DNA from: Megasphaera hutchinsoni
GTDB lineage: Bacteria; Bacillota; Negativicutes; Veillonellales; Megasphaeraceae
Assembly (NCBI RefSeq): GCF_001553405.1
Contig: NZ_KQ960928.1
Coordinates: forward strand, 1-64,000
Length of the DNA stretch: 64,000 bases
Direction of reading: 5' to 3'
Positions 19,247 through 49,518 of this stretch are shown piece by piece. The notes below the pieces were generated by a model. That model did no database searches. It worked only from the letters and a program-made list of their open reading frames with translations, and was not told the DNA's origin. Numbering within the stretch: the first letter of the stretch is position 1; each line of letters opens with the position of its first letter. Position numbers and translations under genes: made by a program.

Positions 19247-19252
19247 AAATAC

Positions 19253-19347
19253 ATATCATGTGACTGACGGAAGTGGAGTTAACCACGGGGAGCATGAAGA
19301 ATATAGCCGACCGTCTGGGCGATGTATCCAGACGTGTCGGTTTTTTT
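19253..19347 (+). promoter_or_regulatory. ZTP (pfl) riboswitch with intrinsic terminator
   Basis: The sequence matches the pfl/ZTP aptamer as I know it: a GTGACTGACGGAA start, the GGAGTTAACCACGGGGAGCATG part, and the conserved ACCGTCTGGGC pseudoknot segment near 19310. The terminator arms 19307-19318 and 19328-19340 followed by seven T share bases with that conserved segment, so ligand binding would prevent termination. ZTP signals folate shortage. The downstream gene is an AICAR transformylase, a classic target. Confidence 0.95.
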
Positions 19348-46258: not shown

Positions 46259-48061
46259 GTGACGACGAAATATATTCGTAATTTTTCTATTATTGCACAT
46301 ATTGATCATGGTAAATCAACATTGGCAGATCGCTTATTAGAACGAACAGGAACGGTATCACAACGCGAAATGGAAGCACAGCTATTAGATACGATGGATT
46401 TAGAGCGTGAACGAGGTATAACAATTAAAGCACAGTCAGCACGGCTGATATATGATGCGAAAGATGGACAACAGTATTGCTTGAATTTAATTGATACGCC
46501 TGGGCATGTTGATTTTAACTATGAAGTATCGCGTAGTTTGGCTGCGTGTGAAGGTGCTTTATTGATTGTCGATGCGACACAAGGGGTAGAGGCACAAACA
46601 CTAGCCAATGTATATTTAGCATTAGAACATGATTTAGAAATTATTCCTGTCATAAATAAAATTGACCTACCTAGTGCTGATCCAGAACGGGTACGACATG
46701 AAATAGAAGATGTTATTGGCTTGGATGCTTCTGAGGCTATTCTTGTGAGTGCTAAAACCGGAGAAGGTATCGATGAGGTGCTAGAGGCGATTGTAACGCA
46801 TATTCCAGCACCACCTGAAGCGAGTGATAAACCATTGAGAGCATTAATTTTTGACTCCCATTTTGATTCTTACAAGGGAGCTATTGCCAATGTGCGTGTT
46901 ATGGAAGGGAGTATCCGACCAGGTCAAAAAATTCGTATGATGGCAACGAATAAAACTTTTGAAGTCATTGAAACGGGCGTATTTTTACCACAAATGCATG
47001 CAGTTTCTTCACTGGAATGTGGGAGTGTAGGATATTTTGCTGCGAGCATGAAAAATGTTCGTGACTGCCGTGTAGGGGATACGGTTACGTTAGTTGATAA
47101 ACCGGCGGCTGAACCGCTTCCAGGATATCGTAAAGCTGTGCCGATGGTGTATTGTGGCTTATATCCTATTGAAACGAATGAATACGATGCGCTACGGGAT
47201 GCTTTGGAAAAGTTACATCTCAATGATGCGGCTTTGTTATTTGAACCAGAAACATCTACGGCTTTAGGGTTTGGTTTTAGATGTGGTTTTTTGGGTTTGT
47301 TGCATATGGATGTTATTCGTGAGCGGTTAGAACGAGAATATGGATTGACGCTAATCACTACGGCACCATCGGTTATTTATCATGTATATTGTACTGATGG
47401 GACGATGGTTCCTGTCGATAATCCCTCGCTTATGCCGGATATGACAAAGGTAGATCATGTGGAAGAGCCGTTGGTAAAAACAACCATTATTATTCCTAAA
47501 GAAATGGTCGGAACAGTAATGGAAATTTCACAACATCGTCGTGGTCAGTATATTACCATGGATTATTTAGATGATACTCGTGTTTCCTTAGTATATGATT
47601 TGCCTTTATGTGAAATTTTATATGATTATTTTGACACATTAAAATCAGCTACGAGAGGGTATGCTTCGTTAGATTATGCGTTACATGGGTATCAAGAATC
47701 ACCGATGGTGAAGATGGACGTTCTTTTAAATGGCGAAGTAGTGGATGCATTAAGTGTTATTGTTCATCGTGATTTTGCGGCTCGGCGTGGGCGTGCATTA
47801 GTTGAAAAATTGCGAAGTCTTATACCGCGGCAACTGTTTCAAATTCCTGTACAAGCAGCTATTGGTAATAAGATTATCGCCCGTGAAAATGTGGCTGCAC
47901 TGCGAAAGGATGTCTTGGCTAAATGTTATGGCGGAGATATAACACGTAAACGTAAGCTTTTAGAAAAGCAAAAGGAAGGCAAAAAACGGATGAAACAGTT
48001 TGGGACGGTAGAAATTCCGCAAGAAGCCTTTATGGCGGTATTAAAGGTTGATGAATCGTGA
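46259..48061 (+). CDS. lepA: Elongation factor 4 (LepA)
   Basis: LepA/EF4 is a ribosomal GTPase that affects initiation and back-translocation under stress. The 600 residues have the P-loop [47 protein letters not shown], and the LepA-specific C-terminus [27 protein letters not shown]. The start is GTG with AAAGGAG upstream. Its stop overlaps the hemW start (GTGA). Confidence 0.98.
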
Positions 48062-49185
48062 TTGGGGTGTATGTTCACATTCCATTTTGTATTAGCAAGT
48101 GTGCCTATTGCGATTTTCCCTCGTATAGTGGCTGTGAATCACTGTACGAGGAATATATTCAGGCCGTATGTCGAGAAATCGAAACATATCAGGGGGAACG
48201 GCACGCTGATACAATTTATTTTGGCGGGGGAACACCATCTCTTTTGCCAGTGGCTCTATTAGAAAAAGTACTGGTTTGTTTACGGCACCAATTTATTGTG
48301 TCCGAAGATGCGGAAATTACAGTAGAAGCTAATCCCGATAGTCTTACGCTTGATATGTGTCGTCAGTTAGCGACAATCGGTGTCAATCGCCTTTCGGTGG
48401 GGGTACAATCTTTTCAAGATGATGTATTACGATATTTAGGTCGCCCTCATACAGGGAAGATGGCATATCAACTGTTTGAAGGGATTCCTAAAACGGGGAT
48501 TACGAATATTTCTTTAGATTTGATGTATGGGTTACCTGAACAAACCGTGGAAATGTTTCAACAAGACATCGAGATGATTCCCACTATTCCCGTGACTCAT
48601 GCGTCTATTTACAGCCTTATTGTAGAAGAACATACCTTATTATACCGGCAAGTGCAACAAGGTAGTATATTGTTGCCAATGGAAGAGACGGTAGAGCAAA
48701 TGAAAACTATCTTATTTTCTAAAATGGCTGAATGGGGATTTTATCATTATGAAATCTCGTCTTATGCTAAAGAAAACTATGAATCTATTCACAATAGTAA
48801 GTATTGGAAATATCTTCCTTATATTGGCTTTGGTGCAGCGGCACATTCTTTTGATGGAAGGCGGCGCTGGGAAAATGTACGCAGTATAGCACAATATATT
48901 CGTTATAGTAATCAAGATAAATGTATTTTTCATCAATTTGAGGTTTCTCCTCAACAGGGGATGGAAGATTTTTGTTATTTAGCTTTGCGTATGCAGCGGG
49001 GGATATCTTATCAAGCGTTTTATAAGCAGTTTCAGACGAATATAGAAGATGAATTTGGGAAGGAAATAGAGCGTTTATGTACGCAAGGATTATTGGAGAA
49101 AACACAAGATGGAGTTTGTCTTAGCGATTTGGGGTTGGCCTATGGAAATTATGTGTTTAGTCAATTTATCCGTGTATCCTCATAA
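48058..49185 (+). CDS. hemW: Radical SAM heme chaperone HemW-like
   Basis: This is a radical SAM protein of 375 residues related to HemN. It has [17 protein letters not shown] with the CxxxCxxC cluster site near residue 11, [28 protein letters not shown] and [11 protein letters not shown]. It is the shorter HemW type, often next to lepA in Firmicutes. HemW passes heme to acceptors; it is not a coproporphyrinogen oxidase. The GTG start overlaps the lepA stop by 4 bp. The next element is an ncRNA promoter 25 bp after its stop. Confidence 0.94.
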
Positions 49186-49209: not shown

Positions 49210-49239
49210 TTGACAATATATTTATGTATTACGTATACT
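49210..49239 (+). promoter_or_regulatory. Promoter of the 49.25-kb RNA
   Basis: TTGACA at 49210-49215 is exact consensus and TATACT at 49234-49239 is near consensus, with an 18-bp spacer. Start of transcription should fall near 49246. Confidence 0.8.
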
Positions 49240-49245
49240 AAAGAA

Positions 49246-49480
49246 GATACGTGTTTGTGGTTGAAAGTCGATGCCAGTCGCAGGCAAAGCGATCCACGTA
49301 AGGAATTTTAGAAAATTCCGATCATAGTGCGGCCTAGAAGTAAGTCCTGCCGTATAAAACGAGAGAGTGAGTAGTGGGGGATGAACATCTAAGAGCGAAA
49401 GTTCCAGCAGGCGAGTGTGGGGGTAAAGACCAGGTCAAGCGTATTGGAAAAAGCTGTGTTTCGACATAGCTTTTTTTTTT
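49246..49480 (+). ncRNA. Unassigned structured non-coding RNA, about 235 nt
   Basis: A stretch visibly richer in G and C than its flanks lies between a strong promoter and a strong terminator, with no open frame having a ribosome binding site. Helices seen: TACGTG/CACGTA (49248-49253 with 49295-49300) enclosing TCG..CGA and TGCC/GGCA; a perfect 8-bp hairpin (49302-49309 with 49312-49319); a long-range CCTGC/GCAGG pair (49346-49350 with 49407-49411); and a GAGC-GAAA-GTTC GNRA hairpin (49393-49404). It lacks the conserved parts of RNase P RNA, SRP RNA, tmRNA and T-boxes. It could belong to a known Firmicutes class such as raiA RNA; I cannot confirm this. Confidence 0.75.
49449..49480 (+). terminator. 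Terminator of the 49.25-kb RNA
   Basis: A 12-bp stem with one G-U pair and a TTCG loop, followed by ten T, ends the RNA. Confidence 0.92.
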
Positions 49481-49489
49481 GCTTTAAAT

Positions 49490-49518
49490 TTGACGTTTTA
49501 TACTACGTATAGTAAAAT
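49490..49518 (+). promoter_or_regulatory. Promoter of the thioesterase / acyl-CoA dehydrogenase operon
   Basis: TTGACG at 49490-49495 and TAAAAT at 49513-49518 are 17 bp apart, 35 bp before the first ATG. Confidence 0.7.

What the first reader, a model, noticed from the sequence alone, without database searches (positions are those of the whole stretch)
49246..49480. Free-standing structured RNA with its own promoter and terminator
A 235-nt stretch, visibly richer in G and C than its surroundings, sits between an almost perfect promoter and a strong terminator, and has no translated frame. It shows several nested helices, a GNRA tetraloop hairpin and a long-range pair. It does not contain the conserved parts of RNase P RNA, tmRNA, SRP RNA or a T-box. 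The strength of the promoter suggests abundant RNA. It may be a known but little understood class (raiA RNA is one to test) or a new one.
Basis: partly seen in the sequence, partly recalled or inferred. Interest (0 to 1): 0.75.

Follow-up and report, generated by a model that had tools for sequence, protein, structure and literature searches.

The report
raiA (ModT) RNA in a Veillonellales genome
This is a gene for raiA/ModT RNA, a known, intricately folded bacterial RNA of unsolved function; here it persists as a single free-standing gene in a bacterium with no detectable Spo0A sporulation regulator and no c-di-GMP-making GGDEF domain, so neither of those pathways can be its basic job.

Summary
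Window 49244-49447 (+) matches Rfam raiA RNA (RF03072) end to end at 185.7 bits (cut-off 101.3). It lies between a TTGACA-18-TATACT promoter and a UUCG-loop terminator. The genome has one copy, as do all 52 complete genomes tested in the order. Helices covary across 58 distinct homologues, including both core pseudoknots; the window's family carries a compensatory G-C to A-U swap in pk-2. The RNA is not a cis-regulator here: it has its own terminator, the next gene has its own conserved promoter, and the downstream neighbour differs between families. The host genome has no Spo0A and no GGDEF domain, so the sporulation and c-di-GMP effects reported in Clostridia are lineage-specific outputs. 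Best mechanism: an abundant, sigma-A-driven RNA that folds compactly and acts in trans, probably as a ribonucleoprotein, in growth transition (inferred). Two side results: one large Negativicutes family lost the RNA completely, and Thermosediminibacter/Tepidanaerobacter relatives carry a 113-121-nt 'mini-raiA' that keeps P1, P3 and pk-1 but lacks P6-P8, always directly upstream of a zinc-finger gene.

The parts
49210..49239 (+). sigma-A type promoter of the RNA gene, TTGACA-18-TATACT
   Evidence: 11 of 12 consensus matches; 32 of 36 distinct loci of the order have at least 11 of 12 here
49244..49447 (+). raiA (ModT) RNA, full Rfam model RF03072; transcript start expected near 49246
   Evidence: 185.7 bits, model 1-209; one copy per genome; covariation
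49276..49282 (+). 5' half of pseudoknot pk-1 (loop of P3), pairs with 49328-49334
   Evidence: pairs kept in 58 homologues with compensatory changes, e.g. C49279-G49331 to U-A in 5
49325..49326 (+). 5' half of pseudoknot pk-2, pairs with 49424-49425
   Evidence: 49326-49424: A-U in all 7 members of the window's family, G-C in 50 others, 1 exception; 49325-49425: U-A in 53, C-G in 5
49424..49425 (+). 3' half of pseudoknot pk-2
49446..49477 (+). intrinsic terminator, 14-pair stem with UUCG loop followed by a T run
48058..49185 (+). upstream gene hemW (radical SAM heme chaperone); neighbour only
   Evidence: TIGR00539, 286.9 bits, over cut-off
49490..49518 (+). separate promoter of the downstream thioesterase gene, TTGACG-17-TAAAAT
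   Evidence: the same TTGACG...TAGTAAAAT element precedes the thioesterase gene in L029 and L044
49553..49969 (+). downstream hotdog-fold thioesterase gene; neighbour only
   Evidence: PF03061 56.3 bits, TIGR00369 over cut-off

Best explanation
The locus is the single-copy gene of raiA/ModT RNA. SHOWN here: full-length family member, own strong promoter and terminator, conserved helices and both pseudoknots. INFERRED from homology to the C. difficile and C. acetobutylicum RNAs: transcribed at high level by sigma-A RNA polymerase during exponential growth, released as a stable ~235-nt RNA that folds into the compact P1-P8/pk-1/pk-2 globule and acts in trans, most likely by binding one or more proteins, to adjust the transition out of rapid growth. 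SHOWN here: this host has no detectable Spo0A and no GGDEF domain, so the conserved activity cannot run through sporulation control or c-di-GMP synthesis. The C. difficile effects on tRNA/rRNA levels and growth transition are closer to a shared core function (inference).
For: cmscan 185.7 bits over model 1-209, gathering 101.3. One copy in own genome and in 52 of 52 complete genomes of the order. Promoter conserved. Covariation: 85.6% of cells paired and 28 pairs with two-sided changes, against 31-47% and 12-18 when partners are slid, and 79% and 21 when shuffled; pk-2 covaries in both of its pairs. Own terminator. Downstream genes differ between families: zinc finger, ABC transporter, cold-shock protein, cysS, a cysE-like gene, thioesterase. 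Spo0A_C 0 matches and GGDEF 0 matches in G000, with positive controls ringing. PMC11706538: abundant, sigma-A promoter, acts in trans, altered DMS pattern after deproteination. PMC11751092: compact fold with pk-1 and pk-2.
Against: No expression data for this organism. No protein partner is known for the family. The genome is a 32-contig draft at 99.3% completeness, so an absent gene could in principle be missed, although the absence of Spo0A also holds across the order.
Confidence: 0.93

Rival explanations
1. It is a cis-acting riboswitch or leader that controls the gene downstream, as Rfam's type label ('Cis-reg; riboswitch') says.
For: Rfam type line. In Sporomusa-like Negativicutes and some other Bacillota the RNA lies about 30-45 nt upstream of a zinc-finger gene with no detected terminator in between.
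Against: Here a terminator ends the RNA and the downstream gene has its own conserved promoter. The downstream gene differs from family to family. The zinc-finger gene and the RNA are doubly dissociated: family f5 keeps the gene without the RNA, and the window's order keeps the RNA almost always without the gene. Trans complementation in C. difficile rules out a purely cis role (PMC11706538).
Confidence: 0.04
2. Its conserved role is control of sporulation and/or c-di-GMP signalling, as the knock-out phenotypes in Clostridia suggest.
For: Knock-out phenotypes reported in C. difficile (PMC11706538) and in C. acetobutylicum (as cited there).
Against: Own genome: no Spo0A_C and no GGDEF match. 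None of the 23 genomes of the order tested has Spo0A, yet all complete ones carry the RNA. Conversely G265 has Spo0A and 22 GGDEF matches but no raiA RNA.
Confidence: 0.05
3. It is a housekeeping ribozyme that processes tRNA or rRNA precursors.
For: Very high sequence conservation in unpaired core positions; raised tRNA and 5S levels in the C. difficile mutant, and the authors' own speculation (PMC11706538).
Against: No catalytic activity has been reported in the papers read. A whole family of about 72 Negativicutes genomes in the sample lives without it, which is unexpected for an essential processing enzyme.
Confidence: 0.1

Closest known systems
raiA RNA / ModT (Rfam RF03072), C. difficile and C. 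acetobutylicum
   Same: Full-length model match, promoter type, single copy, P1-P8 with pk-1 and pk-2, free-standing gene
   Different: Flanked by hemW and a thioesterase gene instead of comFC and raiA; one terminator seen instead of two 3' ends; pk-2 has an A-U pair instead of G-C in this family; host lacks Spo0A and GGDEF
6S RNA (RF00013)
   Same: Abundant structured RNA linked to growth phase
   Different: No match at this locus; the genome has its own 6S RNA at G000:C31:106117-106295
Leader-type raiA RNA upstream of zf_Tbcl (PF13451) genes in Sporomusa-like Negativicutes
   Same: Same RNA family at full length
   Different: No detected terminator there, zinc-finger start codon about 30-45 nt downstream; here free-standing

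Membership tests
raiA RNA (RF03072) | Covariance-model score over the curated cut-off across the whole model | tested here: met
   185.7 bits against 101.3, model 1-209
raiA RNA (RF03072) | Conserved P1 and P4-P8 helices with covariation | tested here: met
   28 pairs with two-sided changes in 58 sequences; P5 pairs are poorly aligned in my alignment
raiA RNA (RF03072) | Pseudoknot pk-1 between P3 loop and pk-loop, 7 pairs | tested here: met
   49276-49282 with 49328-49334: 6 standard pairs plus A49276-C49334 in the window (A-U in 52 of 58); compensatory changes
raiA RNA (RF03072) | Pseudoknot pk-2, 2 pairs | tested here: met
   57 of 58 and 58 of 58 standard pairs, with two-sided changes in both
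raiA RNA (RF03072) | Expression as abundant RNA from a sigma-A promoter | tested here: inconclusive
   promoter sequence present and conserved; abundance needs RNA data
raiA RNA (RF03072) | Action in trans | not testable with these tools
   inferred from PMC11706538
raiA RNA (RF03072) | Frequent neighbours comFC and raiA (common, not defining) | tested here: not met
   neighbours are hemW and a thioesterase gene
riboswitch | Conserved regulated gene downstream and an expression platform | tested here: not met
   neighbour varies, own terminator, downstream gene has own promoter
6S RNA | Match to RF00013 | tested here: not met
   no match at this locus; 6S RNA is elsewhere in the genome

The most novel reading that the evidence does not exclude
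In Thermosediminibacter, Fervidicola, Thermovorax and Tepidanaerobacter relatives raiA RNA has shrunk to a 113-121-nt core (P1, P3, pk-1; P6-P8 lost) that forms the 5' leader of a zinc-finger gene. There the 3' strand of P1 can pair with the start codon region instead (7-9 pairs), so the mini-raiA could switch translation in cis. If so, the P1/P3/pk-1 core is the working part of the family and full-length raiA RNA, as in the window, could be a sensor that works in trans.
Probability: 0.25. Interest if true: 0.72.

Novelty: new member of a known kind. Interest (0 to 1): 0.38.

Why it matters
raiA RNA is among the most conserved bacterial RNAs without a known biochemical function, and its knock-outs have been studied in spore formers. 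This locus belongs to a compact-genome lineage that keeps the RNA in every complete genome tested while lacking Spo0A and, here, GGDEF domains. That removes two candidate explanations and points to simple hosts (Veillonella, Dialister, Megasphaera types) for finding the core function. The clean loss in one large Negativicutes family and the mini-raiA lineage are natural deletion experiments.

Tried and rejected
Zinc-finger protein (PF13451) as obligate partner or target: rejected by double dissociation. A split RNA in mini-raiA genomes: a search for the missing core motif TAGAAGTAAGTC found no excess over the reversed control. 6S RNA replaced by raiA RNA: rejected, 6S is present in 40 of 40 genomes. 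A shared operator TACGTATASTA in the raiA RNA and thioesterase promoters: two exact copies, but 5 hits against 2.2 expected with one mismatch, so not claimed. Weak Rfam hits sraA, HYMAI and others: far below their cut-offs. The founding knock-out paper in C. acetobutylicum is not held, so I cannot say whether its authors saw the mini form.

Full report
WHAT IS THERE. cmscan of the whole window finds raiA RNA (RF03072) at 49244-49447 (+), 185.7 bits against a gathering score of 101.3, over the complete model. A promoter TTGACA-18-TATACT stands at 49210-49239 and a terminator hairpin with a UUCG loop and a T run at 49446-49477. GC is 48.5% against 39% around it, all three forward frames carry stops and the only ORFs are short, and the fold is better than shuffles (z -2.7).

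STRUCTURE ACROSS HOMOLOGUES. In 58 distinct homologues, the Rfam pairs plus P3 are formed in 85.6% of cells and 28 pairs show two-sided changes. Sliding the partner by 1-3 columns gives 31-47% and 12-18; shuffling gives 79% and 21. pk-1 changes compensate (C49279-G49331 to U-A in 5 sequences). The two pairs of pk-2, known from the cryo-EM structure (PMC11751092), covary as well: 49326-49424 is A-U in all seven members of the window's family and G-C in 50 others, with one exception; 49325-49425 is U-A in 53 and C-G in 5, the latter in two different families. P5 is poorly resolved in my alignment.

DISTRIBUTION. One copy in the own genome (1.57 Mb, 99.3% complete); 52 of 52 complete genomes of the order; 126 of 200 in the class, where it is missing from one large family (f5, about 72 genomes in the sample, none positive) and from G265; 18 of 199 in the phylum. 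Genome sizes and family structure suggest a small-genome Megasphaera relative of the order Veillonellales (inference).

NEIGHBOURHOOD. Upstream is hemW, downstream a hotdog thioesterase with its own conserved promoter. Among relatives the downstream gene is a thioesterase (window family), ABC transporter lipoprotein (f4, f110), cysS (f2), a cysE-like gene (f3), cold-shock protein (L038, L041, L069) or a zinc-finger gene of type PF13451 (Sporomusa-like genomes, L037, L039, L042), the last with no detected terminator and about 30-45 nt between RNA and start codon (names other than PF13451 and the thioesterase read by eye from the translations). The RNA therefore exists in two formats, free-standing and leader. 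The zinc-finger gene is present in nearly all f5 genomes, which lack the RNA, and absent from nearly all genomes of the window's order, which have it; it is not the obligate partner or target.

FUNCTION. In C. difficile the RNA is abundant, stable, driven by sigma-A, acts in trans, and its loss delays the transition to stationary phase, raises tRNA and 5S RNA, and changes c-di-GMP and sporulation (PMC11706538). In the window's genome there is no Spo0A_C and no GGDEF match, while control genomes ring; none of 23 tested genomes of the order has Spo0A. G265 has Spo0A and 22 GGDEF matches but no raiA RNA. So sporulation and c-di-GMP cannot be the conserved function. The best reading is a trans-acting structured RNA, probably in a ribonucleoprotein, that tunes the exit from rapid growth. 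That step is inferred, not shown.

SIDE RESULT: MINI-RAIA. Short hits of 105-121 nt over model 1-209, below the Rfam cut-off, appear in two families (f36, f81). An exact pattern names them: Thermosediminibacter, Fervidicola, Thermovorax, Tepidanaerobacter and unnamed relatives, 13 contigs. A covariance model from six of them finds matches in 21 of 25 genomes of that class, three of which score far lower; of these the two from sister family f126 that I inspected carry full-length raiA RNA at the same place (L119, L120). So the mini form is a derived reduction. It keeps P1, P3 and the GCCG/CGGC core of pk-1, has lost P6-P8, and is the leader of the zinc-finger gene in every case read. The P1 3' strand can pair over 7-9 positions with the start codon region (shuffle fraction at most 0.008), whereas full-length leaders reach 3-6. 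The sequences are related, so this is a lead, not proof. L052 (G261, same class as the window) shows a different internal deletion.

VERDICT. Interest lies in the host context and the mini form rather than in the locus itself.

Noticed in passing
L032, L033, L034, L035, L054, L055, L101-L118: Mini-raiA RNA (113-121 nt; P1, P3, pk-1 core only) as leader of a zf_Tbcl gene in Thermosediminibacter/Tepidanaerobacter relatives, with possible pairing of P1 3' strand to the start codon.
   Followed up: partly
L052:5007-5111 (-): A different internal deletion of raiA RNA in a Negativicutes genome (G261), keeping P1 and the 3' junction but lacking P3 and P5.
   Followed up: partly
L072 and other f5 genomes: One large Negativicutes family lacks raiA RNA in all sampled genomes; in L072 the zinc-finger gene stands without any raiA remnant upstream.
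   Followed up: partly
L067:5024-5309 (-): raiA RNA of 286 nt with an internal near-duplicate of the pk-loop segment (GCAGCTTAGA-GTAAGTCCTGCCGCAG).
   Followed up: no
window 49230-49240 and 49504-49514: TACGTATACTA and TACGTATAGTA overlap the promoters of the raiA RNA gene and of the next gene; possible shared operator, statistically weak.
   Followed up: partly
window 19250-19327 (+): ZMP/ZTP riboswitch, 58.7 bits against a cut-off of 39.
   Followed up: no
G084, G180, G246, G365: 6S RNA scores are clearly lower (54-58 bits) in four of five genomes of the family that lost raiA RNA than in the other genomes tested (63 bits and more).
   Followed up: no
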